From Halichondria panicea (Eukaryota; Porifera; Demospongiae; Suberitida; Halichondriidae): a stretch of DNA of 64,000 nt. This document shows, in pieces, positions 2,229 through 39,771 of this stretch. The notes below the pieces were generated by a model. The model worked only from the letters and a program-made list of their open reading frames with translations, had not been told where the DNA came from and did no database searches. The stretch is from contig NC_087384.1 of the NCBI RefSeq assembly GCF_963675165.1, forward strand, positions 5,325,182-5,389,181. Direction: 5' to 3'. Within the stretch, counting starts at the first letter, position 1. Every line of letters starts with the position of its first letter. Made by a program: the position numbers and the translations under genes.

Positions 2229-2413
2229 TTTTTGGCTATTTTCAGGAAATGCAACCGATGACAGAACGAGAGAGGGAGAAAATACTCAACGGAGAAGTAC
2301 GAATGCCTCTTATTGAAAGACTGGAAGCTAAGCTTTTAAATGTTACTGCGAGAGGTGGTTCAAAGATAAAAATTAAAGTTATAATTACACGAGCTTGCAA
2401 ATACACATCCTAA
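2229..2413 (+). pseudogene. C-terminal fragment of an A-subfamily array protein
   Basis: The frame ending at the TAA at 2411 gives the last third of an A protein: MTEREREKILNGEVRMPLIE, then a lysine-rich linker, then ITRACKYT and stop. It is nearly identical to the end of the gene at 8014-8876. Everything upstream of the FFxFFP position is absent; the preceding 130 bp resembles non-coding sequence at about 13250-13370. It is a 5'-truncated relic and marks the left limit of the array in this window. Confidence 0.85.
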
Positions 2414-2474
2414 ACACTTAATTTGATTGTGTACATACTTGACAATTGTATATAATTACAGGTGGCAGTTATAG

Positions 2475-4019
2475 CATAGATAAACGAACAGAAAAGGATT
2501 GGAAACGCCTATCTGGCCCACGTAATAGAGGCTAGTTACGGTCACATGACAGGAAGCTCTAAAATTAACTCTTCTTCCACTGCAAGCCCATAGCAACGAT
2601 AATTATGTATGCACGCATGTTTGACATATCCATGGCAGCAAATATAGCTGCTATGTCCAATACTAACCCCCACCCCCCACAGCTCCCTGCCCCACACTGA
2701 GTCCGCTGTCTATAATGGAATGATCTCATACGATGCAACCACCAACATGGCCACCTACACCTGTGACACTGGGTACACCATCAGTGGAACCATAGATAGA
2801 AGAGTAATTACTTGTAGGAGTGATGGTACCTGGTCTCCAACACCACCCACTTGTACAAGTAAGGCCTAAATTTATATACGTACACATGCATGCATGGTGC
2901 AAGGTCTTCGCTCAAAGTCCATTTGCGTAGTAGGAACAGCATCTAGAATCTGTAAAATTATGTTGGACTGTTTATAGACTGTAATAGAGGTTCAACTCTG
3001 GTGGAGCATGCTACTGTTTACATCCCTGAAGAAGAAGATGCATCTGCTGAACTTATGATGAGAGGATCTGTTGTTGTGTTGTGTCCAACTTGTTAGATCT
3101 AATAATTGTCCAACTTGTTAGATCTAGTTACACTAGTACAATTTTGCTCGGAAGCAAGAAGCAAAGTGTATTAAACGTAGAGAGACACTGCAACATCAGA
3201 CATAATTTTTAATTGTTTTGTAAAATTAATTGTATAATAAATAAATCGATTATAAATTATTATTATTGTATAATACATTGTTGTAACATTGTACAACAAT
3301 TTATTCCTGGGTCTCTGGGAGAAGCTTGTCATTGATAACTCGTCTGAATCACAAAATTAACACAATACGTACAAACATGACATGTTAAAATCATTACAAA
3401 GTATATACACACACAGCGTCAAAAATGTATGTAATGAAAGGTACACATGGCTCATATCCAGGTATTAAAGCAATACCAAAAATAAATGTCATATTCCTAT
3501 TCTACTATGCATAAACAATTAGAAAACACATTAAACGCTACTCACGCTAACTTAGAAGTCACTGTGGAGGACCGGTAACATGATAGAGAAAATTTACTAC
3601 AAGTAGTTACCAATTATTATTTTTATAATAGAATGCCAGCATTGATGGCTATTCCCATTCTATTGAATATGAGCTTTCATATAATACAGCATTCAGTAAG
3701 TAATAGACTTGCAAAAGTGAGATATAGGAACAAAACCTTAAAATGTAGCTGTTTTGAGCACAAATCCAAGCACAACTGCCAGTGTGAGCGTCCTGGAGCA
3801 TCAGTTGGAGCTATCTGGCAAACCATGTGGATGCTAGAAGTTCAGTGCATACTTGGATTTCCCCCTGTAGAAATCGGCTGAAGAGAAAAGTGGGCAGAGC
3901 TCAACCAGTGCATAGATTCTGGAGCGTAACAAGCCTATTCTGAGGGTGTGACGTCACACGTTGAGATTGTAATGGATCACGTGAGGCGTTTCCAATCCCT
4001 TTTTGTTCGTTTATCTATG
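2475..4019. mobile_element. 1.5 kb terminal-inverted-repeat element carrying sushi exons
   Basis: The left end CATAGATAAACGAACAGAAA and the right end (reverse complement) CATAGATAAACGAACAAAAA continue together into GGATTGGAAACGCCT, giving imperfect inverted repeats of about 36 bp. The 7-base word GTTATAG lies immediately outside both ends (2468-2474 and 4020-4026), as expected of a target-site duplication. No transposase frame is seen, so it is non-autonomous. A partial end of the same kind (GGGATTGGAAACG) occurs near 59746. The superfamily is not assigned; a 7-8 bp duplication would be compatible with hAT-like elements. Confidence 0.8.
2683..3096 (+). pseudogene. Two exons of a sushi (CCP) domain protein, captured inside the element
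   Basis: Exon 1 (2683-2858) follows a pyrimidine-rich AG acceptor and ends at GTAAGG. It encodes a sushi-like module: NGMISYD, then YTCDTGYTISG, then ITC, then GTWSPTPPTC. The first of the four usual cysteines is missing (SLPHTES precedes NG). Exon 2 (2978-3096) joins in phase to give CNRGSTLVEH, an acidic stretch, and a stop. Sushi domains normally occur in secreted or surface adhesion and complement-like proteins. No signal peptide exon is visible and both exons lie within the inverted-repeat element at 2475-4019, so this is probably a captured gene fragment; transcription cannot be judged. Confidence 0.6.
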
Positions 4020-4026
4020 GTTATAG

Positions 4027-5170
4027 TGACTAAAAGTATGTTGTGTGTTCAAAGTACATATACGTATACGTATACGTGTACGACCAAATAGTGGTACAGT
4101 TTTTATGATTGTCATGCGTTAATTTGGAAACTCTTAAAATAACGTATGTAATAAGCCTATAAGTACCAATACTTTGGGCCTCAGCTCAATGAAGCTGCCA
4201 CCATGCATTCATGCAAGGACATTGCATTGTATATACGTATACATATACAAAGCTCAATGTATTTTACTCGAAATTACTCGATATAGGCACCATTCTATGC
4301 ACACGTATATCTATATTTTACGACAACACAACATCTTTCCTCAGCAGTTGCACGTACTACTCTCGAGTTTGCAACACTTATCCGAAGGGTGGAACCCAAG
4401 GCCGCTTGGCCACACATAATTATAGCTACATATAACATGTAAGATGTATCAGGGAAAGTATTTCTGTTTACACATGCATGCATGTATATGGCTTATAATT
4501 ATTCATGGGCCGCTTAAATGGTCGTGAAATATATGATTTGAATCCTTGAATGAGTCGGCAGGAAGTCTAGTGCTCATGTTGTGAATAACTAAGACTGCAT
4601 GTACACTATAAAGTATATACATTGAACAATGAGCTGTTCCTTGAAGTTTAGTTAACGCTACCAGGACACCTATATATAGCGGCCTGTGTGAAGAATAGTA
4701 AACGCAGCTAAATCATCATGCATGCATGCAGCTATAAAACACACTATGTAATAATTGCCAATGTTATCATTGCTATACCAGTAAAAATGTTAGAAGTGAT
4801 CATTAACTCCACTTCATAATCTGACCTCAGGCTGGCGAACATTAGTCAATACATATATACAATATAATATACCTACAAGGTGTATTGAATACATATATAG
4901 CAACAGACATGTTGTGTGGGTGGTTTGGCTCACAGTGAAACCCTATACGTATATAATATCAAGGTATGTAATGTGCTGTATATAAACATTAATTTTATAT
5001 CCAGAAATCGAGGCTGACAGCTATCTATACATATTTAAAATTCATATTGTGTGGGAGTATCGTTAAAAATTAGGAACAAAGAAAATATGAATACAGGCTA
5101 TACATACCATAATTATACATTTACTACACGTGCAGTTATAAGCAGTGAACATTCATACGTATATGTAGTT
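4027..5170. repeat. Spacer before gene A1, built of shared array modules
   Basis: No gene is seen. The stretch carries words that recur before other array genes: GAGTCGGCAGGAAGTCTAG at about 4553, GACATGTTGTGTGGGTGG near 4908 (also near 24590 and 31160) and CTCAGCTCA-type sequence near 4180. The open frames at 4174-4480 lie in this repeat and have no support. Confidence 0.6.
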
Positions 5171-5324: not shown

Positions 5325-6125
5325 ATGGCAGAGCAACTAGCTCCAACTGACAGTATTGGTATTCATCTAAAAGAAGAGTATGGTTCTAAGCCTCCAAATA
5401 CACATATTGGATGCTTCTACATCAAGCTTGGACAAGAAATTTGTCAGTATCCCAGGATTCTACTAAAAGCAATTGATGCCCTCAAAAGTATACTAGGATC
5501 GACCAAATGGGGAAAAACAGAGCCAGGAGTATTTTTCTTCAAAGCCCCAGAAACAACAACAACTGATGAACGTAAACACGAGGAAGAGATGAACGCTCAA
5601 ATTCGGGAGAAGTTGATGACAGATTTGCAAGGACATGATACTGGCATCCATATCATACTTAGTAGAGCATGTTTATACACAGAAAATAGCCGTGAGATAA
5701 CAACAGAGGAAATCGGGGAAAAATTAACATACGTGTGTGAGCACAACGTCACAGGAAGCACCCACATCGACTATTTTTACCTTTTCATACAAGCAGTTGT
5801 CAGAGAGGAAAGCTTTGACAAGAAACAAGCCAAAATAAAGAATGAAAAGGTGCAAAGTAAGGCTTTGGAAGAGCTCAAAACACTACCGGGAAATTGGAAA
5901 TCAGTGAAACCCCAAGAAACATGGCCAGGAACATTTTTTGGCTTTTTTCCAAACGGGTTAAATGAACGACACCGGGAGGAACTACTTAATGGGGAGGTAC
6001 GAATACCTCTTATTGAAAGATTGGAAGCTAAACTTGAAGGTAAGAAGATTCATGACAGTCTTGGCCTGGAGCTAAAAGTTCAGGTCATAATCACACGAGC
6101 TTGCAAATACACACCAACAGAATGA
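5325..6125 (+). CDS. Array protein A1, two-module family of unknown function
   Basis: The frame is intact and intronless, 266 codons from the ATG at 5325. I do not recognise the family. Module 1 (about residues 8-120) runs from IGIHLKEEYG through HIGCFYIKLGQ and a tryptophan to an EExNxxIREKL stretch and ends ILSRACLYT. Module 2 (about 125-262) repeats the plan: IGEKLTYV, HIDYFYLFIQ, LPGNWKSV, TWPGTFFGFFP, an arginine/glutamate-rich EELLNGEVRIPLIERL segment and IITRACKYT. The two modules are clearly diverged copies of each other. No signal peptide, membrane segment or disulfide pattern is visible, so a soluble intracellular protein is likely. The conserved motif at 5176 lies upstream. Coding status is supported by full alignment with the other A copies. 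Confidence 0.85.
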   Translation: MAEQLAPTDSIGIHLKEEYGSKPPNTHIGCFYIKLGQEICQYPRILLKAIDALKSILGSTKWGKTEPGVFFFKAPETTTTDERKHEEEMNAQIREKLMTDLQGHDTGIHIILSRACLYTENSREITTEEIGEKLTYVCEHNVTGSTHIDYFYLFIQAVVREESFDKKQAKIKNEKVQSKALEELKTLPGNWKSVKPQETWPGTFFGFFPNGLNERHREELLNGEVRIPLIERLEAKLEGKKIHDSLGLELKVQVIITRACKYTPTE

Positions 6126-6547: not shown

Positions 6548-7700
6548 TGTACTATGTAAATTGTTATGCAAAAATACTAAGTACTTTTTTATCTACGCAC
6601 ACATGGGATAAAACAATAGCATAATACTAAAGTGTGTGTGTGTCGTCTAAAAGTCTAATTTAACTATAATTAAGCAAATGTATAAATGTACAAGGTACAC
6701 AGCTAGTTAACGGGTGACACCCCAGAGTTGTGGCCAATGTTTGTTTATCCACTTAGATGGTCATGAATATTGGGCATTTGAAATTTGAATTGAATGTTTT
6801 TAACGAGTCGGCAGGAAGTCTAGTGCTAGTGTTATGAATACAGTAAACACTCATGCAGAGTGATTGTATATACAATACAACAAACAATAAGCTGTAACTT
6901 CCTTAATGTTTTACAACACTGTCAGGACACCTATAGGGGAGTATGTATAAAGACTGATTTAGAATAGCTATAATTATTATCATACCGGTATACACACTGT
7001 AAAGAAACATTATCATTGGTACCGTAAACATGATCAGTAGCTCTATCATTTAGAACCTGCACTTAATAGCTAGACCATTAGTCAATACAATCTGTATTGA
7101 ATACGTCTATATAGCCACAGACATGTTGTGTGAGCGATGAAACAATATAATTTATTAATAGGTAATTCATACACAACACAAGGAACTATGTACTTACTAT
7201 ACATGTACCTTAATTACCATGTCTGTGGCTATATAGACATATTCAATACAGATTGTATTAACTAATGGTCTAGCTATTAAGTGCAGATTCTGAGCTACTG
7301 ATCACTAGCTCTAAACATGTTAACATGGCCACAAATAAATATGCTACATACATGTACGTATCCGTTGAGCGCAGGACAGTGACTTATACTGTGCACCTGT
7401 TTACTAACAGAAGCCCTGTTATGTGAAGCCTATGGTAATGACAAAAAGCCCGATAGTTGTATGCAAGAAGACTATACCAAGGATGTCTAAAGTTATGAAT
7501 ACGATTAGTAATAGGATGCTATAAATCATGTGATACTATAGTGTAACATCAGAATAAAATATCTAGTATGCAAGCAGAGACACAAACATTAATATATAAG
7601 TTAAGACAGTTTACAGTGAGTATTTGAATGTGAGAGAGTTAATTCTGTTAACGTATAAAAATAATACTGTCAGTAACAGTACAACAGTACACGTTCAGAC
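6548..7700. repeat. Spacer before gene A2, shared array modules
   Basis: No gene is seen. It carries the recurring words GAGTCGGCAGGAAGTCTAG (about 6814) and CTGTCAGGACACCTATAGG (about 6922). A local inverted repeat is present: 7070-7140 (CATTAGTCAATACAATCTGT region) is mirrored at 7210-7290. Confidence 0.6.
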
Positions 7701-7930: not shown

Positions 7931-8013
7931 AGCAAATCAGAAAATTGTAAGTGTAGTAACATCCGGCCTTATACTCCACGGAAGAATCCATTGGCAAGCA
8001 ATTTGTGCAGAGC

Positions 8014-8876
8014 ATGGCAAGGAAAGAAATGGCAGTGACACTACTTACTGACGACATTGGTGATCACCTACAACAAGAGTATGGTTCTGAGCCACCAAAT
8101 ACACACATTGGATGCTTCTACATCAAGCTTGGACAAGAAATTAGTAACTCTCCAATCAGCCAAAAAGAAGTAATTGATACCATCAACCGTTTTATGATAG
8201 GTCCGAATCAATGGGTCAAATCAGTGGCAGGATGGGATGGAGTCCTTTTCTTTCAGAACTCAAAAGCAACAACGAATCCGAATGATGAACGCGACATTGA
8301 ATTAAAGATAAACGATACTATTCGAAAGCCTTTGATTACAGATTTGAGCAAAAACTGTCCTGACATTCATAGCATGTTTAGTAGAGCTTGTCTGTACAAA
8401 GAGAATATGGAATGTGCTAGCAGCCAGGAGATAACAACAGATAAGATTGGGGATATTATGGAAAACGTGTACGAGCACAATACCATACGAAGCACTCACA
8501 TTGAATACTTTTACCTTTTTGTACAAGCTGTTGTCAGAGAAGAAAGCAGCGGCACAAAACAACATACGATAAAGGACGAAAAGGTGCACATTGAGGCATT
8601 AGCAGTGCTAAAAACACTACCAGGAGATTGGGAAGCAGTGGAACCTCAAACAACGTGGCCAGGAACTTTTTTGGCTTTTTTCCAAAGAAAATGCAACCAA
8701 TGACAGAACGAGAGAGGGAGAAAATACTCAACGGGGAGGTACGAATGCCTCTTATTGAAAAATTGGGACCTAAGCTTGAAGAAATGAGGCTTATTAATGA
8801 CCTGAAGCCAAAAGTTCAGGTTATAATAACACGAGCTTGTAAATACACCCCGATAATTAAAGAGGCCACATCCTAA
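8014..8876 (+). pseudogene. Array gene A2, interrupted by a one-base frameshift
   Basis: From the ATG at 8014 (MARKEMAVTLL) the A-type protein reads well through IGDHLQQEYGSEPPN, HIGCFYIKLGQ, FSRACLYKE, HIEYFYLFVQ and TWPGTF. It then leaves frame at about 8670 and stops at 8703. The continuation KKMQPMTEREREKILNGE to ITRACKYTP and stop at 8876 is in the next frame. Compared with A1, one base is missing just before the T run (CATTTTTT in A1, CTTTTTT here). Restoring frame is not needed to see that both halves are otherwise well conserved, so the lesion is recent or a sequencing error in a homopolymer. Confidence 0.8.
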
Positions 8877-10180
8877 CTGAACAGATTATAATTGTTGGAC
8901 TAATTTTTGTAACAGAGTATTGAGATACACATGCAGTTCTGCGATTGTTTTTGTAGAAGTGGAAATTAGCTCTTACGTATAGTACTAATAATTATGACAC
9001 TCAGTTTCTTATAACATTATAGACAGGTCACAGATCAAACTGGGTGGGGGCCCAGCCACCATTCCAGCACATTACTGTTTAACATAAATTATGTGTGTAT
9101 ACACGTCTACAACTTGAAAAGTAGCTTTTATCTATGCACACAGGGATATGCTGTTGTCACACTTTGGCTGTCAATATTACATGAATAGAAGCTACATGGG
9201 TTATTCCATGAGAATAGCAAAACACTTCGTAAGTGGCCCCTCATGCAAAACTGTGGTCATAAACATTAATTCTTATATCGTTTAAAGTCTATTTGTGTTG
9301 AGTTTGACCTTCATAATGTTGTCATAACTTTGTCGTACTTACACTGAAATTCATGTTTCATGGATTCCTTGCCTATAAAAAGCGCTTCTATATCTATTAT
9401 GCTGTAGAGCTGATAAGCTTAAACCAGCTAAAGGATATAATTATTCCATGTACATGCAGATTTGTTCAATCAAAAGTACTCGATAAGCACTACTATATCT
9501 ATAATATTATATGCACGCAGGAATACACTGTTACACAACCATTTCAAGTATGCCATCACTAAAATGATGCTACTGCATGTGTGTGTGCAGTTGTCAGTGT
9601 GTGTGTGTGTCGTCAAAAGTCTAGGAACTAATTAGCAAATGAACACAAGGTACACGGGTCATTCAACACCTCAGAATTGTGGCCAAATATATTCGCTTAT
9701 CCACTTATAGATGGTCATAATTGGGCACTTGAAATTTGAATGTTTAAACGAGTCAGCAGGAAGTCTGTATAGTGCAGTATTGTGAATTCCAGAATGGAGA
9801 GCCAATGTTTACTTATCAGAATTTGGGTATACCATATAGACTCGGTAAACAGATCGAGTGTGAGTTGACATTAATCGTGCTTTTGCCATGCTACATTCGT
9901 ATCTTGAGCAAGGCAGTGAGTGACTTATTGTTACACATGAAGTATACTATATTCATGTACGCGAAATCTGTTGACAGTATTATGTGAGGCCTATAATAAT
10001 TATTATGACATTAAACAAAAGCCAGTTAGAAATTTTTACGCAGGGACTTTACCTGGTAAGTACGTACATGATTATTTTTACGCCCTATTACATTCTACAC
10101 ATACCTATTGTCGGCAAAAGTCTAAACAATAAGTCTGTAAATATGGTATTGTCTATATATAGCACTCATAAGTAACAGCT
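8877..10180. other. Spacer between A2 and B1, no gene seen
   Basis: It contains a GT-rich patch at 9590-9611, the recurring spacer words around 9610-9770 (GTCAAAAGTCTAGGAACTA, GAGTCAGCAGGAAGTCTGTA) and several short frames without family motifs. Confidence 0.5.
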
Positions 10181-10292: not shown

Positions 10293-11057
10293 ATGGAAAA
10301 TAGAACTGCTAAAGTTGGAGCAATACTGGAGAGAGAGTACGGTCATCTATCAGATCAGAATGTACATATCGAATACTTTTTTCTCATACTTGGAACAAAA
10401 CTTCTTGGCAAACGAGATGAAATCATTGCCACATTGGGCGGCATAAGTGCATGGGATACCCTCGGGAAAAAAGGGCCTCAACTATTGTTTAGTACAGGTA
10501 AATGTCCTAAGATATCACTATTTGAGACAGAGCGCCAACGAGAGGAGAGGCTCAATCTTCTTTTTCGAATGCCGTTACTTGTTAAATATGCAGACCCCAA
10601 CAACCCACCACATATCATTGTCAGCCGTGCTTGCGAGTACAAAACAGAGCCTTTTGAAATGGTTAAGAACAGCTTGAGTACTCCTGTGATAGAAAGTATT
10701 CTCAGAACCCCTAGCGACGAGCACTTGGATTATTTCTATCTTATGATAACACAACATTTTTCATTAACAGAAGTCGCACTACCCTCGAGCATCATTCTAG
10801 CACCACATATTCCTGGATATTGGAAGGCAGTCGAGGCTGAGGACGATTTTCCACTCACATTTTTCAGTTATTTTCCCAAAAAACTTTTTGAAACGGAGCG
10901 TGAGAGAGAGTGGCGACTACACAAAGAAGTCCGAATACCTCTTAAGGAATATCTGAAAGACGAACTTATAAAGCAGTTTCAGGCCCAGGGCATACTTCTG
11001 CCAGAGAAACTTGTTAGTATTGTGTTCACACGTGCTTGTACATACACGAATATGTAG
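10293..11057 (+). CDS. Array protein B1, two-module family of unknown function
   Basis: The frame is intact and intronless, 254 codons. The frame is open further upstream but the first ATG is at 10293 (MENRTAKVGAIL), matching the starts of B3 and B4. Module 1: VGAILEREYG, HIEYFFLILGT, WDTLGK, TERQREERLNLLFRMPLL, IIVSRACEYK. Module 2: IESIL, HLDYFYLM, IPGYWKAVE, FFSYFPKK, ETEREREWRLHKEVRIPLKE, IVFTRACTYT. B differs from A mainly by ETERQREERLN in module 1 and a longer helix before the final FTRAC in module 2. It is probably soluble; the function is unknown. The B upstream block at 10181 supports expression from its own promoter. Confidence 0.85.
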   Translation: MENRTAKVGAILEREYGHLSDQNVHIEYFFLILGTKLLGKRDEIIATLGGISAWDTLGKKGPQLLFSTGKCPKISLFETERQREERLNLLFRMPLLVKYADPNNPPHIIVSRACEYKTEPFEMVKNSLSTPVIESILRTPSDEHLDYFYLMITQHFSLTEVALPSSIILAPHIPGYWKAVEAEDDFPLTFFSYFPKKLFETEREREWRLHKEVRIPLKEYLKDELIKQFQAQGILLPEKLVSIVFTRACTYTNM

Positions 11058-11675: not shown

Positions 11676-11796
11676 TCTGCAAAACAACCCCACCCCACTT
11701 CTGGTGCTGCAAAACAGCCCCACCCCACTTACTGCTGCAAAGAAACAGCCCCGCCCCACTTACTGCTGCAAAGAAACAGCCCCACCCCACTACTCA
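11676..11796. repeat. Minisatellite, four units of about 30 bp
   Basis: CTGCAAA(G)AAACAGCCCC followed by GCCCCACTT-type sequence repeats head to tail about four times. The minus-strand frames at 11359-11944 are produced by these repeats. Direct, unspaced and imperfect, so not a CRISPR array. Confidence 0.8.
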
Positions 11797-11799
11797 GTG

Positions 11800-13885
11800 A
11801 ATACATGTGTACGTGTATTAGCTGCTGGTCTACGCTCAGCCTCATAACCAAGCCAAGAAAGCTCGCTTCTACACTGCTGCAAAACAGCTCATGCCCCCAG
11901 CATAAAGAGCCACTTCTAGTGCTAGGGTGAAGCAGAATTGACATGCATCACGAGGTCGAGGACTAGGTCGATCTAGGAACACAGAATCTTCCACAAAATG
12001 AATCTTGGACAATTTTAAAACCTGCATGGTTGCAAGAAGAAACTCCAGCAGTGCTGAACATACATTCCTGCATGGCTGGACATACTTTGATACTTGTTAT
12101 TTCTCATGCGTATTAATTTAATTTTAATTTAATTGTCTGTCTAATGCCAGAGGGGCGTTTTGTGGTCAGTGCAATATGACTTTCAGCAGTGCATTATGCT
12201 GCATATTGCACTTGGCAACAACGTAGCAACGGGATATAAGTACATATAATTATGGGAGCTAGTCTTTTATACAATTGAACATGGTGATTATAGACAAACC
12301 TCGTCCTCAAAGCTGCTGTGTAAGGAGCTGCAGTTGTGGTTTCGGGTGAGGTCTGCATGGCGATGGAATGATACTAATTTTGATATCTGCATGAGAATTG
12401 CACATAATACCAAGGGCATATAAAGAGAGAGGGCATGCAACTACAATAAAAACATTGCTAGACTAGCCTCCTCTATTCCCTAGTGGACTGTTGGTTAAAT
12501 CCTGCTGACTCATCAATAATACGACGCATACACAGTATACATTGCAAGTTGCATGCCCTCTTCTCTTTATACGCCCTTGATAAATTAATACGTGTATATA
12601 ACTTATTGCACTCCAAAGAAGCTTTCAATTCACAACTATGCATGCCATCAACATATTTAAATGGGTCAAAATATTCATGCACTCCTGGTAAAATGTATAC
12701 ATCTATAGAGCTAGCACCATTATGTCACAACCCGGGCATAGGTTATGTAACTGTATTATTATAGCTTAGCACCATAGTACACGTCGCGTATCCATGGGTA
12801 ACCCAACAATGTACCCCCTCTCCCTGAGTACCTATATAGCACCACAGACTGTGGTACAGTATACGTGGCATGCCCATGGATCACCAATAGTGTACAGCAC
12901 GTATACATGTGCACCATCTACATGCATGTATACCAGCTATCTATAGCACCATAGTATCCGTGGCATACCGAAATTGGAGAGGCAAACTTGAGCTTGTGAC
13001 TGGAACAAAAAAGAACCACCTCAGGACAAGAACTGTTTAATAGGAACACATCCTTCAACGGAAGAAACCGAGGACAAAATGGAACTTGCGATCAGGTGGT
13101 AGTCGTGATACCAGTCCTACTGGGGGATTGTAGGTGCTCATGCAATATTGCAAAGGTTCAAGCTAGTCTCATGAACATTAAATAATGCTTATCTACCATT
13201 CATGTATAGTGTATACCAGTATCTTCCAGTTGATCTTGTCTTTTTGTAGTTCATTATGGTAAAGATCCTTAGTTTTATATTAGAGATTTTGGTAGTCTGT
13301 AAAAAAGGGGGTGCGGATCTGCATGCTAAGTTAACTTATATATAACAACCTATGCATGTAGATCTACAAGGTGATTCTCTCATATAGTAATAATGCAGCT
13401 ACAGCCAGCCATGCATGGGGATTGCAAATCAGAAGAAACGATAATTACTCGGAGCATACAGTCCACTGAAAACTGCATGTTTATGGCTCTATAATTATAT
13501 ATATATGTAGCAATCGGTGGACTTAGATGCGGAGATACTACCTTCACGACAGGATGGCCGTTGGAGAGTCTTTATTGAAATAAGCAAAAAATTAATAGAA
13601 GACTGCCTGAGCAGTGCGAGTATATATGCCAAACAGCTGAATCTGACGCTATTGCAGAGGAGGACTCAAGCAAATTAAAAGCTGGTTCCCATGAAAACAC
13701 TGAAAAAAAGAGTATTTCATTGAGTGAACAAGAAGGACTGGTGTACCATAATTGATCACACCTCTAAAGCCATTACTTCCAATGCCGAACAAGACAAGTA
13801 CAAGACGTACATGCAATGCCTTGTCCACACTATACGTACTCTTACTCCCACAAACACATAGAGAAATGAAGCACTGCATGCTAGC
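11800..13885. other. Intergenic, no gene supported
   Basis: Several frames of 60-90 codons occur on both strands without motifs or splice structure. A stretch at 13250-13370 resembles the sequence before the A fragment at 2100-2228. The word GAGGAGGACTCAAGC at 13660 echoes exon 4 of the HAUS8-like gene but extends no further. Confidence 0.45.
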
Positions 13886-14192
13886 TATGTATGGCTTCAG
13901 ATATGACCCGAAACAGACTATGTTTTTTTTGTTAAAATCAATAACAATTTCTGTACATGATAAAAATCATAAAATCATAATCAATGCTTAAGATGGAGGG
14001 CATTTCGAGTTTAAATTGTAGTGACATAGATCCTATAATTATAATGGTATGTATGGCATCAGATATGACCCAAAATCAATAACAAGTTCTGTACATGATA
14101 AAAATCATAAAATCATAATCAATGCTTAAGATGGAGGGCATTTTGTTGGGAGTTTAAATTGTAGTGACATTAGACCCTATAATTATAATGGT
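13886..14192. repeat. Tandem duplication of about 150 bp
   Basis: Two head-to-tail copies begin ATGTATGGCTTCAGATATGA or the CATCAG variant. Both contain GTACATGATAAAAATCATAA and end TCCTATAATTATAATGG or CCCTATAATTATAATGG. Confidence 0.85.
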
Positions 14193-20323: not shown

Positions 20324-22900
20324 GCTATAGCAGAGGAGAGCACTGTATAATTATACTATTATTATAACTAACCATAATGTCATACATGCACAAGATATAT
20401 ATCTACTTTCACATGCAACGCTTTTTAGTACACACACGTATAATTATTAATCATGCAGAAGTGAATAATTATACGTATTAGTTAATGTATAGTGTAGAGG
20501 GGTTTACTGTCATAAACCCTGAGGCACTGTGCATTAATTGATATATGTCCCATCTGATAGGCTAACTGGTTGCTATGGATCAAGCTTGCATGACTACCAC
20601 ACAGCAACACTATTCAAACAAGAAGACAACTAGGAAAAGAGAGCTCGTCCACGCCAGGGCTGCTGTCCACACTCAAATCTTGCGCAGCCTGGACAAAATA
20701 TGAGCAGCCAGCCCCTCCCTCAAAGCGAACGGTACAGAGCCACTCCCCCTCTCTGTTCAATTAGTCAGCCCCTCCCTCCACTTACTGCGCAGAAACCAGC
20801 CAGAAGAAACAACACAGCTAGCTCTAGACGGTGCTTATACGTACTACATTCGAATTGCTTGTATGGTTTATATCAAGAGTTCAATAGGAAGTCTTTAGAG
20901 TATGCAACTCCACTTAAAGCCGTAGTACTGTCCAACAAACGTCACAACCACATGCTGTTGTACAAACTGAATAACATTAGTACTGATGTTATTCATGGCC
21001 TTTCTTTACATGTGGTTGAGATTTTATCAATATTGTTATAGCCAGTGCCTTGTATCTCAAGTGGTTGTGGTTAAAATAGTGAGTATTTGTGACGTACATG
21101 TAGGTCTGGCAGAATGCCTCCTGTGTACAGTCTATTGGAGTTGCATATACTCTTCCTAATGAACTCTTGCTTAATATTTATGAGCCACTTAAATGGTCGT
21201 GAATATCGGTTATTTGAAATTTGAATCCTTGATAGAGTCGGCAGGAAGTCTAGTGCTAGTGTTGTAAATAAACTAACAGCGTGACTGTACAATAAACAAA
21301 CAATACATTGCAACCATGCATACATTGTGAGAGCTTCCATAATGTTTCACAGTATAGTTAACACTGCCAGGACATCTATAGAAATGAGAGTGTGCCGCAA
21401 ACGTAGCTACATACAGTCTAGAGAGTAGATTACCACAAATGTGTGAGTAGTTGTACTTAAATGTTGATTGGAACCTTTCTAGTGCTGATACCATTGTGTA
21501 GGTGAATGAGTAAACTACAACGTATTTCTCCAAAATTCCATGAAAACATGAGGTGGTAGGTTTGGGGGATAAATAGAACAACAGACAAAGTTGTAGTGGG
21601 TAATCGGTTAGAGTAATAAAACACTAACCTTAAAACACTGTCAGTTAAGGTCTCAGATTTCATAAGATAATTGTTGAATGGTTTAGGTTTCCTGGCTATC
21701 CTTTATCAGTCTTAATACTATGTTCACAGTGTATGTAATTCACGATTTACTGGTTTTAAGGTATACTTTTGGTTAGAGTAATAACTTCTGAAAAATTAAT
21801 AGCTTAGTTTTCAAATTTCTTTAGTACTATAGTAAGTTTACAGATAAATGGGCTACATTTTGATACCAAGAACATCCTCTATACGTGTTTATTCCATTGC
21901 TGAGATAACACTGAAAACTACATACCGTATAATATGCTCGATCTTGTATAAATGCCGCACTCAAATAGTAGCCTCCCTTGCTAGCAAAATGAAACATTTA
22001 GTAGCCGCTCTCAAATAGTAGCCTCAGTGAACTTTTGACTCTAGCATTTCTGCACGTTGGCAGTCAAAAAATTAAGCTAGCTAGCTACATGTACGTAGCT
22101 ATACTAGGTACAGGTAGCAGCTTGTTAGTAGTGCTTCACAAAGACTTTCTCATGGCAGAAATCAAGTTTTTATGGAACTTTTGATGACAAACTGAATTAG
22201 CTGGAGCTAATAAACGCCGCTCTTGAACAGTGGCCTCTCTTGAATATTGTAGCCTCCTCTTCCAGCAAAATGTAGCTGCGGCTCCTGATCAAGCATATAC
22301 AATAATATAGTATGTATTTTACTAATTGTTTTGATGACATCAGCAGCTGCTAACCACAAACCAATGCCGCTTAAATTAACCACAGAAGTGAGCGTACAGC
22401 AATTTTTAAGCTTGTTTGATTATATCCCAATGAAGAAAAAGCCTAAAATTAAGCCAGAATACCTCAAGCCAAGTTTGAACAGTCCATCTTTACAAAATTG
22501 TACAATCAAAACAATTTGTATGCCTATAAATTCTGGTGCTCTTGAATTCCTGAATGTTTAATTATGAAGGAAAAAGAGTGCATTAATTATGCTATTTAAT
22601 GTACGCGTCACATGACCACTTTTGTGCACTGTCATTGGCTAGTGGTCACGTGATCAGCACTATAATTATAGGCAATAACAATTCCTGACCACTTGGTGAA
22701 TTATGCATTCTACATGTTATACGTAGCAACAATATTTTGTGTGGGTGGTTAAAACAACAGGAAGTCCTATATACGCACAAAAAGAACGTGATTATGTACA
22801 ATGCAATAGCTGCGTATAATGGACTACATTGTATGCATGTGCAGCTAAGAATGGAGTTTCATACTGCACGTACATGTAATTAATAATGAAATAGCTGAAG
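20324..22900. repeat. Duplicated spacer downstream of C1
   Basis: The parts 20324-20690 and 22530-22800 recur next to each other downstream of C2 (36880-37450), with GGCACTGTGCATTAATTGAT and CATTGGCTAGTGGTCACGTG in both. The 1.8 kb between them (about 20690-22530) is absent from the second copy. It contains the recurring GAGTCGGCAGGAAGTCTAG word (21235) and a MITE-like element. No gene is supported. Confidence 0.65.
21921..22315. mobile_element. Probable MITE in the C1 spacer
   Basis: The left end ATACCGTATAATATGCTCGATC is approximately mirrored by GATCAAGCATATACAATAATAT on the right. Inside, GTAGCC(T/G)C words repeat (CTCAAATAGTAGCCTCCC). The equivalent place downstream of C2 lacks it. Confidence 0.5.
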
Positions 22901-26026: not shown

Positions 26027-26842
26027 ACAATAACATATGACTATTAGTCTATATGATAATATGGAAAAAGACCGAATGTATTTGTACAAAACAGCAACCA
26101 TGAGAGACACTTTAGGTTCCTAGACAATGGAATAACAACACTCACTCGATCATGTTATTTATTAGACGCATGCATCAGCATACTCGGGTAAGGCCTGTCT
26201 CAGAATCAAGTGATTACGTCTATATCAAGCCAAAATACACTTTAGGCCTCAGCTCAGAATGGTGGCAGCCCATGCAGCTGCCACCACTCAGACACCACGT
26301 GCACATACAAAGCTCAATGTACTGTAATATAAAATTATAATTATATCCCTATACATACAGGGATACACTGTTAAATTGTTTGCCTGTATGTATGTGTGTG
26401 TGTCGCCAAAAGTCTAGGAACTAGCAAATGTACAAAGGTACACGGGTCATTCAACAGGCATCTCAACATTGTGGCCAATGTTTGCTTATCCACTTGTAGA
26501 TGGTCATGAATATTGGGCATTTGAAATTTGAATGTTTGAATGAGTCGGCAGGAAGTCTAGTGCTATAGTGTTGTGAATAAAGTAAATTTACACTCACAGT
26601 GAAAGTGACTGTATATACAATACAACAAACAATGAGCTGTAACTACCTTAATGTAGTTAACACTGTCAGGAACAAACGTAACTACATGTATATCATCTAT
26701 TAATAGCACTGTTGATTGAATTTAAATCATGTGATACATGTACAATATACATGTAACAATGCAATATTGTCGCCAAAAGTCTAGAACAGTACGTAACTGT
26801 GAATACGGCAATGTCAACAGTATTCATAAGTATAACGACTTA

Positions 26843-29437: not shown

Positions 29438-29560
29438 ACCAAGCGGGTTATTTTCGAGGGACAACATTTTTTCACAGATTGCTCAAACTAAACATTTTGC
29501 CCCATTTCATTTTCAAGATAGACGTTCAAATGACCATAAATGACCATACCGTATCCCTAA
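29438..29560. mobile_element. Half MITE abutting truncated gene A4
   Basis: AGCGGGTTATTTTCGAGGGA starts a left half matching 34622-34745 (both contain TTGCTCAAACTAAACATTTT and end CCCTAACAG). The right half present at 34745-34866 is missing. The A-gene homology begins directly at the break. Confidence 0.7.
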
Positions 29561-29561
29561 C

Positions 29562-30326
29562 AGTTCTGAGTCTCTAAATACACATATTCGATGCTTCTAC
29601 ATGTACATCAGACTTGGACAAGACATTTGTCGAGATCCTGAGATTCAAAAAGAAGCAATTGCTATCCTCAACAGTGAAGTAGGTAAAAATCAACAGATTA
29701 AAACAAAACCAGGATGGGTTGGACTCCTTTTTGTTGTGGACCACGTACAAAAAGATAACGAACGCGAACGAGAAAAATATATAAACAAAAAATTTCGTGT
29801 GCCATTGAAGAGGATACAACACCCAGACATCCGTATCATGTTTAGTAGAGCATGTTTGTACAAAGAGAAAAGCCAAGAGATAACAACAGACACGATTGGA
29901 GATATATTAGAATATATGCATGATGGGCCCGACCTCGTAGAAAACACCCATATTGAATGCTTCTACCTTTTTGTGCAAGGAGTTTTTGACAAGGAACACT
30001 TTGTCGAAAAACAAATTAACAGAAAAGACGTGAATGTGCACAGCGAGGCTTTAGAAGAGCTGGAAACTCTACCTGGAAATTGGAAATCAGTAATTACCGA
30101 TGATGCAAGTAATCCTCAAAAATGGCCAGGGATATTTTTTAGCTATTTTCCGAAGGCTTTGACTGAACGAGAGAGGGAGATAATACTCAACGCACAGGTA
30201 CGAATGCCTCTTATTAAAAGACTGGAAGCTAAGCTCACATGTATTACTCCAAGAGATGGCTTGAAGATAAAAGTTCAAGTCATACTAACACGAGCATGCA
30301 AATACACAGATGAAAAAATGAAATAG
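29562..30326 (+). pseudogene. Array gene A4, 5'-truncated
   Basis: Homology to A3 begins at about 29562 (SSESLNTHIRCFY); the first ~25 residues of the A protein, including the IGDYL-YG motif, are missing and replaced by half a MITE. From the in-frame ATG at 29601 (MYIRLGQDI) the frame stays open for 241 codons: KPGWVGLLFV, EREREKYINKKFRVPLK, IMFSRACLYKE, IGDILEYMHDG, HIECFYLFVQG, PGNWKSV, WPGIFFSYFP, TEREREIILNAQVRMPLI, ILTRACKYT, stop. Module 2 is complete. It could still be translated as a shortened protein, or be given a new first exon, since the sequence before the join ends CCTAACAG like an acceptor. I favour a pseudogene in progress. Confidence 0.7.
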
Positions 30327-32898
30327 ACCGTAAAACTCTAGACAATTAGTGTACGCTGTGTGACAATGGACATTAAATTAAGTGTTTTATATTATACACA
30401 TGCATTAGTGTGTGATTTTGTGAGAAGGTATTAATTTTAGCAAACTATTAAACCACTTATTTTAAGACAATATAGCACGTACAGTACAAGCCTTTAAGGG
30501 TAGCACACATAATAATGTATTTACACAAAATTAATGACCATAACAGAGTTGCATTACCGTATACCGTGCGAGGTTTGCAAAGTACAAGCCTGATTACGTT
30601 TCTAACTGTTGCGAATTGCATGCAGCATGCTCACTCTTTGCGTTTCTTTTTTATTTTGATTGCGAAATACAGGAAAATTTGTAATTTGCAATCGAAAGAA
30701 CGTCACATTCAACCCGATATATGGTATTCCTAAGATGTATCGGGGCATCGAGCTACATGAGCTTCTCGAACTTCCGCATGCGTTTCTGTGGCATATATTT
30801 ATGGGCGTGGTACAGTCATGAAATTGACTGCTGGAAATTTGGAATTAGTTGGCAATAGGTTTAGTGGTGATATTGTGGAATGCTGAGACTGAGTGACTGT
30901 ACAATTTAACACTCAACTATATTATTATTAAGCTGTTGCTTATAGTTATATAGTCCATGACATCGTGTGTGAAGAACAGCAAACGCAGCTATATCATCAT
31001 GCAAGTATATAGTACACAAGCACTGTTAAATGCCAACATATAAAACATGTTTGGAGTGATCAGTACAACTCTACTTCATTAATCAATACATGAATGCAGT
31101 CTCCTACGTAGTGGAGTGCCTATATACGTGTATATATTGAATAGTCTATAGCATCAGACATGTTGTGTGGGTGGTTTGGCTCATAGTGAAACCCTACATG
31201 TATGTACGTACAGTGCACATGTACACGTTTACTAAAAAATCGAGGCTGACAGCTATATCTATAGCATTGAAATTTATAATTATTGTGTGGGGGCCGATGT
31301 CGTTAAAAGTTTGGGAACACAAAGAAATATGAATACAGGCTACACAGTGCACATGCAGTTAAGCATTAGTACGTATAAATGTAGTTAACATGCACCGGAT
31401 TTTGCATGTGATTAAAGATATTTGATCAAATTCATAAGCAATGAATAGTAACTGCACGTGTATTGGGATAGAACACAACCACATCTGTCGGTAATGGAAG
31501 AACATATTACTTAGCATGATTGTGACAAAGGTGTATAAGTGTGTTTTGACAGTTTGTGATTGTTTTTGTTGTATTTGGTAATGCAAGTATATACATGTAA
31601 GTTATATGTATAATAACATAATTATGACTATTAGTAATATGGAAAAAGACCGACCTAATGCATTTGTACAAAACAGCAACCATGAGAGACACTTTAGGTT
31701 CCTAAAAAGCAGACAATGGAATAACAACACTCACTCGATCATGTTATTTATTAGACGCATGCATCAGCATACTCAGAGTAAGGCCTGTCTCAGAATCAAG
31801 TGATTACGCCTATATCAAGCCAAAATACACTTTAGGCCTCAGCTTAGAATGGTGGCAGCCCATGCAGCTGCCACCACTCAGACACCACATGCACATACAA
31901 AGCTCAATGTACTGTAATATAAAATTATATTAATTTATACATACAGGGATACACTGTTAAATTGTTTGCCTGTATGTATGTGTGTGTGTCGCCAAAAGTC
32001 TAGGAACTAATTGTAAGCAAATGTACAAAGGTACACGGGTCATTAAACAGGCATCTCAACATTGTGGCCAATGTTTGCTTATCCACTTGTAGATGGTCAT
32101 GAATATTGGGCATTTGAAATTTGAATGTTTGAATGAGTCGGCAGGAAGTCTAGTGCTAGTGTTGTGAATAAAGTAAACACTCATGCAGAGTTACTGTATA
32201 TACAATACAACAAACACTGAGCTGTTATTTTCCTTAATGTATTACAGTTTACTTAACACTGTCAGGACACCTGGGGGAGTGTGTATAAAGACTGAATATA
32301 GCTATATCATCAGTATGTATATATAGTACCGGTATACACATGCAGTGAGTGACACTGTAAAGGACAAACTTATCATTGGTACCAGTTCATTGGTACAAGT
32401 AGAGTGATCAGTAGCTCTCTCATTTAGAATCTGCACTTAGCTAGAGCATTCATTAGTCAATACACACAATACGTACATTGTGTATTGAATATGTGTATAT
32501 ATAATTATAGCTATATACAAAGTGTGAGCGATAAAAGATGTACAAACACAAGGAACTATGACTTTGTAGGAACTGACTTATACCTGCATGTATATACATG
32601 GCCACAAATACATGCTACTATAGATGTACATATCCGTTGAGCAAGGTAGTGACTTATACTGTACACCTGTTTACTAAGCAGAAACCCTGCATGTTATGTG
32701 AAGCCCATAGGGTAATAGCAAAAGGCTACGTAGCTTGATAGTTGTATCAAGAGCATTACTTGGTAAATATATATGTACTACCGAGGACGCCTATAACAGT
32801 TATGAATACGATTAGTGAATACATGATACAATGTAACTATTGCAGTAAATATATGGCAATGTCAACAGTTATTCATAACATAATTCAGTAACGGCTTA

Positions 32899-33035: not shown

Positions 33036-33803
33036 ATGGAGGATGATGACACTGCTAAAATTGGAAAACTACTCGAGCGTGAGTATGGAGAGCCACATCC
33101 ACAAGATCTACACATTGAATACTTTTTTCTCCTACTTGGAAAAGAAATCCTTGACAAACGAATCGAAATCATCGCTGAACTAAACAAAATTGACGGCGTA
33201 AATGTATGGGGAAACCTCCAGAAGGAATGGCCGGAACTAGTGTTTAGTCAAGTGAAATGTCCTAAGATATCACTACTTGAGACAGAGCGCCAACGAGAGG
33301 AGAGGCTCAATCAGGTAATTCGAATGCCACTGCTAGTTCGATATACTGACTCCCAAAACCCACCACGTATCATTGTCAGCCGTGCTTGCAAGTACAAAAC
33401 AGAAGTGGTTAAGCAAAGCTTGAGTACTCCCGAGATAGAAAGCATTCTCAAAACAGCTAGCAGCGAGCACTTGGATTGCTTCTATCTTATGATAAAACTC
33501 CGTAATATTCCACCAACAGTCGCAATGCCCCTGAGCATCAATCTTGCAACACATATCACTGGAGATTGGAAGGTAGTGGAACCAGTGACCGCTTTTTATC
33601 TCACATTTATTGGCCATTTCCCTAAAAAACGTTTTGAAACAGAGCGCGAGAGAGAGTGGCGACTGAACAAAGAAGTCCGAGCACCTCTAAAGGAATACCT
33701 GGAAGGCCTGTTTATAAAGGAGTTTCAGGCCCAGGATGAACCTCTGCCAGAGAAACTTGTTAGCGTCGTGTTCACACGTGTTTGCACGTACACAAATATG
33801 TAG
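33036..33803 (+). CDS. Array protein B3, two-module family of unknown function
   Basis: The frame is intact and intronless, 255 codons from ATG 33036. Module 1: IGKLLEREYGEPHPQ, HIEYFFLLLGK, NVWGNLQKEWPELVFS, ETERQREERLNQVIRMPLL, IIVSRACKYK. Module 2: IESILKT, HLDCFYLMIKL, ITGDWKVVE, FIGHFPKK, ETEREREWRLNKEVRAPLKE, VVFTRVCTYT. The last motif has RVC instead of RAC, as in B4. It is nearly identical to B2 but unbroken and has the clearest promoter block. It is probably soluble; the function is unknown. Confidence 0.87.
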   Translation: MEDDDTAKIGKLLEREYGEPHPQDLHIEYFFLLLGKEILDKRIEIIAELNKIDGVNVWGNLQKEWPELVFSQVKCPKISLLETERQREERLNQVIRMPLLVRYTDSQNPPRIIVSRACKYKTEVVKQSLSTPEIESILKTASSEHLDCFYLMIKLRNIPPTVAMPLSINLATHITGDWKVVEPVTAFYLTFIGHFPKKRFETEREREWRLNKEVRAPLKEYLEGLFIKEFQAQDEPLPEKLVSVVFTRVCTYTNM

Positions 33804-35965: not shown

Positions 35966-36858
35966 GTGCATAGAAAGGCAACTCCGAATCTACCCTATGA
36001 TGTTAAAGCTGAAATTATTGGAAGAAAACTCCAGGCAGAATATGGTGAGAAAGATCCCAACACTCCAATAAACTACTTCATGATTCTGTTGGGCAGACAG
36101 ATATCGGAAAAGCTAAACGACCCTGAGCGAGAATTTGCAGCAAGCCTTGAGAAACTTGGAATGAACGTTTGGAGGATAATCGATGATGGCTGGATGGCAC
36201 AAAAATTGCTCTTCATCAAGTATGATGATCGATTCAGTGATGAGCGTGAAAGAGAGTATGCAGTGAATGTGAAGGTTCGTGAAGACTTGAAGCAAACGTA
36301 CAAGCGTTTAGTTGATAACACTGAGGTGTTAGTCATCACAGACGTTCAAATCATCCTCACTCGAGCTTGCTTGTACTACAAAGAGGATGGCCAATCCCAG
36401 CAACAATCAGATCCACCAGATCAACGGGATCAACGGGATCAAAAGCTACTTCTTATAACTACCAACGAAATCGGAAGTATCCTTAAAAACAAATACTCAA
36501 CTCAAGTACAAGTAGGAGACACTCCGATTGACTACTTCTATCTCTTCATTCAAGTGGAAGAGAATGAAAACCCTAAAAAGGTGCATGAGACTGCCTCATC
36601 AATCCTGAAAGATCTGCCAGGAGAGTGGAGAATTCTCGATGAAGCGAACTGGCCAGAAGTTTACTTAGGCCATTACCCCAAGACATCGGGATTCATGACT
36701 GAGAGAGAAAGAGAAATGAGTTTGAACGAAAAAGTCTGAGAGCCTCTCATTGAGAAAATGCAATCAAAGATCAGGAAAATGCTCACAGAAGCAGATGAAG
36801 CGAGGCTAAAGTTCACGTTATAATCACACGTGCCTGTGACTATAACAAAAATTGTTAG
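35966..36858 (+). pseudogene. Array gene C2, three disabling lesions
   Basis: It is nearly identical to C1 (IIGRKLQAEYGEKDPN, INYFMILLGRQ, NVWRIIDDGW, ILTRACLYY, the DQR hinge, YFYLFIQVEE, LPGEWRIL, TEREREMSLNEKV). The start codon is lost: where C1 has GCATGGCAGC, C2 has GCATAGAAAGGC, and no ATG is in frame before the first module. CGA becomes TGA at 36737, right after MSLNEKV. Seven bases are deleted at about 36800 relative to C1 (TGAGTCC). The remaining tail up to ITRACDY is out of frame. The hinge unit GATCAACGG differs from C1. Confidence 0.85.
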
Positions 36859-36879
36859 TGTAGTAAACAGATTCAACGT

Positions 36880-37499: not shown

Positions 37500-38870
37500 G
37501 TAGTTAACACAGAACGGAATTTGCATGTGATTAAAGATATTCGATCAAATTTATAAGCAACGAATAGTAACTGCATGTGTATTGGGATAGAACACAACAA
37601 CATCTGCCGGTAATGTGGAAATAACATTATTAGTTAGCATAATTGTGACAAAGGTGCATAAGTGTGTTTACATAAGGTGTTTTGACCGTTTGTGATTGTT
37701 TTTGTTGCATTTGGTAATAATTGTAAGTACATGTAAGTTATACATATAATAACATAAATTATGACTCTATATGAAAAAAGACCGAATAGCATCAAAGTAA
37801 GGCCTGTCTCAGAATCAAGTGATTACGCCTATATCAAGCCAAAATACACCTTAGGCCTCAGCTCAGAATAGTGGCAGCCTATGCAGCTGCCACCACTCAG
37901 ACACCACATGCACATACAAAGCTCAATGTACTGTAATATATTAATTTATACATACAGGGTGTTAAATTGTTTACCTGTATGTATATGTGTGTGTGTCGCC
38001 AAAAGTCTAGGAACCAAATGTACAAAGGTACACGGGTCATTAAACAGGCATCTCAACATTGTGGCCAATGTTTGCTTATCCACTTACATTGTAGATGGTC
38101 ATGGAATATTGGGCATTTGAAATTTGAATGTTTGAATGAGTCAGCAGGAAGTCTAGTGCTAGTGTTGTGAATACAGTAAACACTCACAGTGAAAGTGACC
38201 GTACAATAAACAACGAACAATAAGCTGTAACTACCTCAATGTCTTACAGTTTAGTTAACACACTGTCGGGGTGTGTGCATGTATAAAGACTGAATAGCTA
38301 TATCATCAGTTATACATAATATAGAACCGATGTACACAGTGAGTGACACTGTACAGGACGTACAACATTATCATAATTGGTACCGGTAAACATATTTAGA
38401 GTAATCATTCAGAATCTGCACTTATAGCTAGAGCATTAGTCAATACACACACATTGTCAATACAATCTGTATCGAATAGTCTATAGCCACAGACATGTTG
38501 TGTGAGCAATGAAACAATAGAAGGTATTTACTATACAAATACAAGCAACTATGTATACAGAAACTGTACATTACCTGGATGTACATGCATCGCCACAAAA
38601 CATGCTATACACACATGTACACGTATCCGTTGAGGAAGGCAGTGACTTACTGTACACCTGTTTACTAAACAGAAACCCTGTTAAGTGAAGCCTATGGTAA
38701 TGAGCAGCCCGATATGCAAGAACATTACTTAATTGGCAACTGCGTACTACCAAGGATGTCGAATACGATTAGTAATAAGATCATGTGATAATGTTAACTA
38801 TTGTCGCCAAAAGTCTAGAACAGTAAATGAATAAGGCAATGTCCACAGTATTCATAAGTAATGGCTTGTA
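37500..38870. repeat. Third copy of the A-B spacer
   Basis: Order and words follow 24820-26840 and 31390-32890: TTTGCATGTGATTAAAGATA, GCCTGTCTCAGAATCAAGTG, GTGTCGCCAAAAGTCTAGGA, GAGTCAGCAGGAAGTCTAG. No gene here; the A gene expected to its left is missing. Confidence 0.75.
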
Positions 38871-38878
38871 ATGCTTGG

Positions 38879-38905
38879 CACGTGATGATGTTGACATAAC
38901 AGTTG
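38879..38905 (+). promoter_or_regulatory. B-subfamily upstream block (B4 copy)
   Basis: GGCACGTGATGATGTTGACA followed by TAACAG: the E-box is intact, the TATA-like part is degenerate. It lies about 110-130 bp before the ATG at 39010. Confidence 0.5.
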
Positions 38906-39009
38906 AACAAACAAATAGCAACCTACATATAGCTAGCTGCTGACTACACCGAAGTAACTCAAACCAAGAAAATTAATAGCTATAGTCTATAGGTGTTTTA
39001 TCTAATAAC

Positions 39010-39771
39010 ATGGCAGATAGAGTTGGAGCAATACTGGAGGAAAAGTACGGTCCGCCACATTCACAGGATCTACACATTGAATACTTTTTCTTACTGCTTG
39101 GAAGTGAAATTATTGACAAACGAGGTGCTATCATGGACGAACTAAACAAAGCAGGCAAATGGGAAAACCTCGAGAATGAATGTCCTGAACTGATATTTAG
39201 CACAGGGACATTTCCTAAGAATTCACTAACTGAGACAGAGCGCCAACGAGAGGAGAGACTCAATCAGATTATTCGAATGCCGCTGCTATCTCAACTGGCT
39301 GTCCCTAACAACCCGAGCAACCCACCACGTATCATCATCAGCCGTGCTTGCAAGTACAAAACAGAAGTGGTTAAGCACAGCTTGAGTACTCCCGAGATAG
39401 AAAGCATTCTCAAAACCCCTAGCAATGAGCACTTGGATTATTTCTATCTTATGATTAAACTGCTTAACATTCCATCAACAGTTGCACCACCCTCAAGAAT
39501 TATTATTGAAACACTTATTGCTGGGAATTGGAGGATAGTGGAACCAGTGACGGCTTGGCAACTCACAACATTTATCGGGTTTTTCCCCAAATTGAAACCT
39601 TTTGAAACAGAACGTGAAAGAGAGTGGCGACTGAACCAAGAAGTTCGAGAACCTCTCAAGGAAAATCTGAAAGACCTACTTACACAGCAGTTTCAGGCAC
39701 AGGGCCTATTTCTACCAGATAAACTTGTTAGTATTGTGCTCACACGTGTTTGCACATACACAAAAATGTAG
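39010..39771 (+). CDS. Array protein B4, two-module family of unknown function
   Basis: The frame is intact and intronless, 253 codons from ATG 39010 (MADRVGAIL). Module 1: VGAILEEKYGPPHSQ, HIEYFFLLLGS, WENLENECPELIFS, ETERQREERLNQIIRMPLL, IIISRACKYK. Module 2: IESILKTPSN, HLDYFYLMIKL, IAGNWRIVE, FIGFFPK, ETEREREWRLNQEVREPLKE, IVLTRVCTYT. It is the last array member to the right and the most diverged of the B genes. It is probably soluble; the function is unknown. Confidence 0.85.
   Translation: MADRVGAILEEKYGPPHSQDLHIEYFFLLLGSEIIDKRGAIMDELNKAGKWENLENECPELIFSTGTFPKNSLTETERQREERLNQIIRMPLLSQLAVPNNPSNPPRIIISRACKYKTEVVKHSLSTPEIESILKTPSNEHLDYFYLMIKLLNIPSTVAPPSRIIIETLIAGNWRIVEPVTAWQLTTFIGFFPKLKPFETEREREWRLNQEVREPLKENLKDLLTQQFQAQGLFLPDKLVSIVLTRVCTYTKM

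What the first reader, a model, noticed from the sequence alone, without database searches (positions are those of the whole stretch)
2229..39771. A tandem array of an unrecognised two-module protein family
Ten plus-strand genes and one fragment encode proteins of about 250-295 residues that share a fixed set of motifs and match no family I know. Intact genes (A1, B1, C1, A3, B3, B4) sit beside broken ones, all on one strand, with conserved upstream blocks. Lineage-specific arrays with birth and death of copies are typical of immunity, recognition or stress genes in animals, but nothing in the sequence proves such a role. This is the best candidate here for an undescribed system.
Basis: partly seen in the sequence, partly recalled or inferred. 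Interest (0 to 1): 0.88.

Follow-up and report, generated by a model that had tools for sequence, protein, structure and literature searches.

The report
Tandem array of unknown two-module proteins
An animal chromosome carries a long row of related genes for small, probably intracellular, two-part proteins that match no named family, are repeatedly copied and broken, and may belong to the animal's defences, although nothing here proves that role.

Summary
The window holds 10 plus-strand genes plus one fragment (6 intact, 4 broken), as described, and is only the right end of a ~153-kb array (C8:5,211,811-5,364,949; 35 merged profile loci, 17 of them full-length with an ATG, two on the minus strand), with three dispersed copies. 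The ~250-295-residue proteins are two copies of one module (profile comparison, probability 99.9, E 1e-36). AlphaFold predicts two ferredoxin-like modules, each with an extra N-terminal helix (pLDDT 90.5). No Pfam, NCBIfam, PHROG or PDB family fits; 107 proteins found in three searches (some the window's own) carry no Pfam domain or name. Constraint is significant (omega 0.52-0.67); positive selection is only suggestive. Module 1 changes faster than module 2 in three of four subfamilies. A non-coding element (core TGAGTC[GA]GCAGGAAGTC) was found at 29 places in the genome, all inside the array. A GBP-type GTPase gene lies inside the array. Best guess: intracellular defence or recognition proteins (0.4); the family is unnamed, its fold common, its function unproven.

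The parts
2213..2410 (+). gene fragment (end of module 2, alpha type)
   Evidence: profile match hmm 193-255, E 6e-18; DNA repeats shared with alpha copies
5325..6125 (+). intact gene, alpha type (A1), 266 aa
   Evidence: near-identical copy 65 kb to the left, dS 0.012
8005..8876 (+). broken gene, alpha type (A2); frame changes near 8.7 kb
   Evidence: two frames match hmm 2-200 and 191-255; DNA read
10293..11057 (+). intact gene, beta type (B1), 254 aa
19392..20279 (+). intact gene, gamma type (C1), 295 aa
22929..23777 (+). intact gene, alpha type (A3), 282 aa
26993..27768 (+). broken gene, beta type (B2), frame change near 27.4 kb
   Evidence: two frames hmm 1-143 and 141-257
29544..30326 (+). 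broken gene, alpha type (A4), lacks about 20 N-terminal residues and a start codon
   Evidence: hmm 21-256, no ATG upstream
33036..33803 (+). intact gene, beta type (B3), 255 aa; structure predicted
35966..36739 (+). broken gene, gamma type (C2), internal TGA, no usual ATG; match continues to about 36849
39010..39771 (+). intact gene, beta type (B4), 253 aa; last copy of the array
4536..4588 (+). array-specific non-coding element
6728..6886 (+). array-specific non-coding element
9676..9787 (+). array-specific non-coding element
21185..21276 (+). array-specific non-coding element
26467..26635 (+). array-specific non-coding element
32060..32220 (+). array-specific non-coding element (query copy)
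   Evidence: alignment of 29 copies
38057..38186 (+). array-specific non-coding element

Best explanation
A multigene family of small, probably intracellular proteins, each a tandem pair of ferredoxin-like modules, kept in a birth-and-death array. SHOWN: the array, the internal duplication, four subfamilies with relatives on other contigs, significant constraint, faster change of module 1 than of module 2 in three of four subfamilies, a non-coding element found only in the array. PREDICTED: the fold. INFERRED: the slower module 2 contacts a constant partner, module 1 meets changing partners (microbial or viral ligands), and the shared element gives the copies common, perhaps induced, transcription; that is, an intracellular innate-defence or recognition family that works through binding rather than catalysis.
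For: 35 merged loci with intact, broken and fragmentary copies; self-comparison lists duplications of 800 bases or more at 76.6-99.3% identity; omega below 1 with 2dlnL 16.7 (beta) and 33.4 (alpha); in a substitution-only neutral simulation a copy stays open in 13 of 2000 runs at 0.2 substitutions per site; module 1 versus module 2 dN/dS 0.66/0.44 (beta, module 1 higher in 25 of 28 pairs), 0.67/0.38 (alpha, 15 of 15), 0.67/0.54 (delta, 3 of 3); 29 of 29 genome matches of the element are in the array; a GBP GTPase + fibronectin-III gene sits inside the array; in 21 proteins the highest 19-residue mean hydropathy is 1.42, below the usual membrane-helix threshold (threshold recalled).
Against: No expression, challenge or polymorphism data. 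Positive selection is weak: M1a/M2a p 0.0014 (beta) and 0.0011 (alpha) on gap-free columns, but with codons near gaps masked p 0.23 (beta) and 0.003 (alpha), and 1 of 40 simulated null sets reached the masked alpha value (11.81 against 11.46); for M7/M8 0 of 40 reached 27.00, but the highest was 26.28. The module asymmetry is reversed in the single gamma pair (0.34/0.42). The GBP neighbour is one gene, noticed after the fact. Tandem arrays also arise in metabolic, structural and stress families.
Confidence: 0.4

Rival explanations
1. Nucleic-acid-binding family: the two modules act like a tandem RRM pair and bind RNA across their sheets.
For: 17 of the first 20 Foldseek rows for the whole protein are RRM proteins by description (HuR first, E 0.064, TM 0.22 by query and 0.30 by target); aromatic beta1 strand (HIDYFYL) and beta3 (TFFGxFPK) in the module consensus.
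Against: No match is significant; no RRM match in Pfam; in the single-module search few of the 50 listed rows are RRMs; the most conserved residues (E89, E93, R129, C131, Y133 of the module) lie in helix 2 and strand 4, not in an RNP1/RNP2 pattern (pattern recalled).
Confidence: 0.15
2. Ordinary housekeeping, stress or structural family that expanded by tandem duplication without an arms race; relaxed constraint explains the omega values.
For: Overall omega 0.52-0.67 and many broken copies fit weak constraint; the site-model tests are not robust.
Against: Module-specific rate difference in the same direction in three of four subfamilies (pairs not independent); subfamilies kept on other contigs too.
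Confidence: 0.3
3. Ligand-binding or enzymatic family with a site at one edge of each module (His at the start of beta1, Cys and Tyr at the end of beta4, Glu at the start of helix 2).
For: E93, R129, C131 and Y133 are present in 100 of 100 first modules and E89 in 97 of 100, among proteins with two long module hits; the strand order would place these elements at one edge of the sheet (inference).
Confidence: 0.12
4. Remnant or domesticated mobile-element protein (for example an HUH/Y1 transposase-like fold).
Against: No HxH motif in the module consensus; no relative confirmed in viral contigs or prokaryote genomes with the one peptide pattern used in each; copies arise with gene plus flank in segmental duplications.
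Confidence: 0.03

Closest known systems
Ferredoxin-like fold proteins (GGDEF, HMA, PII, AsnC, dimeric alpha/beta barrel, RRM)
   Same: Predicted beta-alpha-beta-beta-alpha-beta order in each module.
Tandem RRM proteins (HuR, Sxl, U2AF65)
   Same: Two ferredoxin-like modules in one chain.
   Different: No Pfam RRM match; no RNP1/RNP2 pattern seen by eye; HuR TM-score 0.22/0.30.
Expanded immune gene families reported for sponges (SRCR, PMC10855680; NLR, PMC12909245; only the starts of the abstracts were seen, in the listings)
   Same: Large expansions in early-branching animals.
   Different: Those families are defined by named domains; the present one matches no domain model and shows no membrane segment by hydropathy.
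Guanylate-binding proteins (PF02263)
   Same: One GBP + FN3 gene lies inside the array.
   Different: No GBP match in the family proteins scanned; association by position only.

Membership tests
RRM (PF00076) | beta-alpha-beta-beta-alpha-beta topology | tested here: met
   secondary-structure order of both models; module 2 has a reduced first helix; topology shared with many unrelated families
RRM (PF00076) | sequence match to the family | tested here: not met
   no RRM match in 6 proteins at E 1 or 25 at E 0.5
RRM (PF00076) | RNP1/RNP2 motifs on beta3/beta1 | tested here: inconclusive
   aromatic beta1 and beta3 but no clear RNP pattern in the consensus by eye; motif recalled
Any family with a solved structure | significant structural match | tested here: inconclusive
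HUH/Y1 transposase | HUH (HxH) motif | tested here: not met
   no HxH in the module consensus; motif recalled
Tandem birth-and-death multigene family | clustered paralogues with gains and losses | tested here: met
Arms-race (defence/recognition) multigene family | positive selection at a subset of sites | tested here: inconclusive
   suggestive in alpha type, not robust in beta type; gamma and delta not tested
Arms-race (defence/recognition) multigene family | induction by microbes, viruses or contact; high polymorphism | not testable with these tools
   no RNA or population data
Allorecognition / surface receptor family | transmembrane segment | tested here: not met
   highest 19-residue hydropathy 1.42 over 21 proteins; hydropathy scan only
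Allorecognition / surface receptor family | signal peptide | tested here: inconclusive
   no predictor at hand; N-terminal 8-residue hydropathy reaches 2.1-2.2 in three of the 21 proteins

The most novel reading that the evidence does not exclude
An undescribed intracellular defence system of early-branching animals: a repertoire of double ferredoxin-like proteins in which one module is constant and the other diversifies, expressed together through a shared array-specific element (a bZIP-like site next to an ETS-like site) and co-located with a GBP-type GTPase.
Probability: 0.25. Interest if true: 0.78.

Novelty: new variant of a known kind. Interest (0 to 1): 0.52.

Why it matters
It is a well-defined protein family with a confident predicted structure, about a hundred found relatives and no name, domain model or function in the libraries searched. 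If the suspected role holds, it would give early animals an intracellular recognition repertoire that matches none of the known immune domains. The array, the coding regions in one open frame and the shared element make it directly testable by RNA-seq.

Tried and rejected
Family libraries gave only chance-level hits in one or two proteins: Pfam best E 0.016 and NCBIfam 0.0074 over 25 proteins, PHROGs 0.015, PADLOC a Csm2 model at 0.0027 in 1 of 25. PDB by sequence: nothing with one protein or the full profile, a ribosomal S14 chain at E 1.2 with the module profile. BFVD: no match at E <= 0.001. Viral and prokaryote genome contigs: 21 and 24 pattern stretches, none confirmed as a relative (one peptide pattern each, so distant relatives could be missed). 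Searches on sponge orphan, immune and expanded families (listings only) showed no description of this family; that is not proof that none exists. Positive selection as a firm claim was dropped after masking and simulation. A pure upstream-promoter reading of the element was weakened because two delta genes, two gamma genes and several alpha genes have a copy 0.3-0.9 kb downstream. Families absent from the VIA lists are not excluded.

Rows dropped before counts: six profile hits under 20 bits were left out before merging to 35 loci, and three of the 35 are scraps of 69-81 bases; the codon models used 8 of 9 full-length beta genes and 6 of 7 alpha genes (near-identical copies 5283190 and 5265401 left out) and no gamma or delta gene, 20 proteins with one long module hit were left out of the conservation count of 100.

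Full report
WHAT IS THERE. The window lies at G000:C8:5,325,182-5,389,181 of a 131.5-Mb, 39-contig genome. ORF listing and a family profile scan find in the window 10 genes and 1 fragment of one family, all on +, six intact (5325-6125, 10293-11057, 19392-20279, 22929-23777, 33036-33803, 39010-39771) and four broken. The scan profile was built from eight window proteins and 44 found proteins, so its E-values for window copies are not independent; the single-protein search is, and it finds them too.

EXTENT. The own-genome search gives 50 matches, a lower bound by the tool's own words. The profile scan places the family from C8:5,211,811 to 5,364,949. After leaving out six hits under 20 bits, merging gives 35 loci, three of them scraps of 69-81 bases (5224539, 5304787, 5307619). 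17 C8 loci are full-length open frames with an ATG; two more are nearly full-length but lack it. Two members (5275662-5276411 and 5279315-5280043) are on the minus strand. Single copies lie on C12 (intact), on C1 at 9.55 Mb (intact) and on C1 at 8.97 Mb (broken). Divergent relatives as queries found no further place: P0057, 46 matches; P0103, 6 weak matches, E 0.014-0.083, all in the array.

RELATIVES. Three searches of 5.8 billion proteins returned 107 different proteins, one of them (P0107) only at E 0.049. All 107 rows show no Pfam domain and no name. Three are marked as the window's own (P0009, P0075, P0096), and P0001 and P0048 are 100% identical to window proteins, so the number of foreign relatives is lower. 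Sources are marked ncbi, ena or lgn; organisms are not given. Several share a longest-contig length (for example 294651, 416496, 617673, 636380, 49102, 74136), which suggests clustering elsewhere too (inference from equal lengths). A midpoint-rooted FastTree of 92 proteins, printed without support values, shows four groups with own members and members from other contigs, and one further group (P0044, P0057, P0060, P0061, P0063, P0064, P0071) without own members. No relative was confirmed in viral or prokaryote contigs with the peptide patterns used.

EVOLUTION. Listed pairwise dS runs from 0.01 to 0.76 (pairs under 0.8 printed). M0 omega is 0.67 (beta, 8 genes, 206 codons) and 0.52 (alpha, 6 genes, 214 codons), both below 1 by likelihood ratio (2dlnL 16.7 and 33.4). 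Module 1 has the higher dN/dS in 25 of 28 beta, 15 of 15 alpha, 3 of 3 delta and 0 of 1 gamma pairs; pairs are not independent. Site models in a home-made implementation favour a class above 1 (p 0.0014 and 0.0011). With codons within three of a gap masked (108 and 120 codons left) beta gives p 0.23 (M7/M8 0.02) and alpha p 0.003 (M7/M8 1.4e-6). Of 40 null sets simulated for the alpha case, 1 exceeded the M1a/M2a value and 0 the M7/M8 value, the highest being 26.28 against 27.00, with numerical warnings in some fits; no null was run for beta. Half-gene trees agree on the main clades but differ in the place of 5276438 (beta) and 5211811 (alpha), so gene conversion is not excluded. I call positive selection suggestive.

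THE ELEMENT. A 161-base query around window 32060-32220 finds 29 places in the genome, 29 of 29 in C8:5,217,322-5,363,367, 27 on + and two on -, the latter between the two minus-strand genes (the tool's counts are lower bounds). A looser scan of the array alone found one more on - at 5280404. In the window the beta genes have it 364-822 bases before the profile match; two delta genes (5231773, 5318573), one gamma gene (5344603) and two alpha genes (5267717, 5333213) have one 827-918 bases after it, another gamma gene (5298853) 304 bases after. In the alignment of 29 copies a zone of roughly 110 bases is conserved, highest (mostly 80-90% or more) over about 45 bases round the core, against about 30-70% outside (two copies were centred off the core by the script). 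The core contains TGAGTC[GA]GCA and CAGGAAGT; likeness to bZIP (AP-1/NF-E2) and ETS sites is recalled, not tested.

SURROUNDINGS. Inside the array, C8:5,248,946-5,258,735, lies a GBP GTPase (PF02263, E 1.1e-27) followed by a 1353-residue open frame with fibronectin-III repeats (E 1.2e-55) and a GBP C-terminal match just under Pfam's cut-off (22 against 24.3 bits). By my grouping of 13 matches the genome has about seven GBP places. To the right of the array are fructose-bisphosphate aldolase, phosphatidylserine decarboxylase, an astacin-like exon and a death-domain match below cut-off.

VERDICT. A real, unnamed protein family in a birth-and-death array, with a common predicted fold. An intracellular defence or recognition role is the likeliest single reading (0.4) and remains inference.

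Noticed in passing
G000:C8:5248946-5258735 (L036, L037), outside the window: GBP-type GTPase gene with a 1353-residue open frame of fibronectin-III repeats, inside the array.
   Followed up: partly
window 43806-45059: Fructose-bisphosphate aldolase class I in a single open frame (Pfam E 2.8e-175).
   Followed up: no
window 45438-46638 and 50206-51937: What look like two neighbouring phosphatidylserine-decarboxylase gene copies; Pfam confirmed 51575-51937 and found nothing in 45438-45842, the rest judged by eye.
   Followed up: no
window 56736-57110 (-) and 62146-62640 (-): Astacin-like metalloprotease exon (E 5.1e-10) and a death-domain match below Pfam's cut-off (E 0.0052).
   Followed up: no
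window 11707-17884 and C8:5284588-5290778: 6.2-kb segmental duplication at 97% identity within the array.
   Followed up: no
window 25056-26030: Reverse-orientation copy 99.3% identical to C8:5241946-5242921; looks like a recent mobile insertion or duplication.
   Followed up: no
window 15381-15472 (-): tRNA match (Rfam RF00005, 46.6 bits), 92 bases long, possibly with an intron.
   Followed up: no
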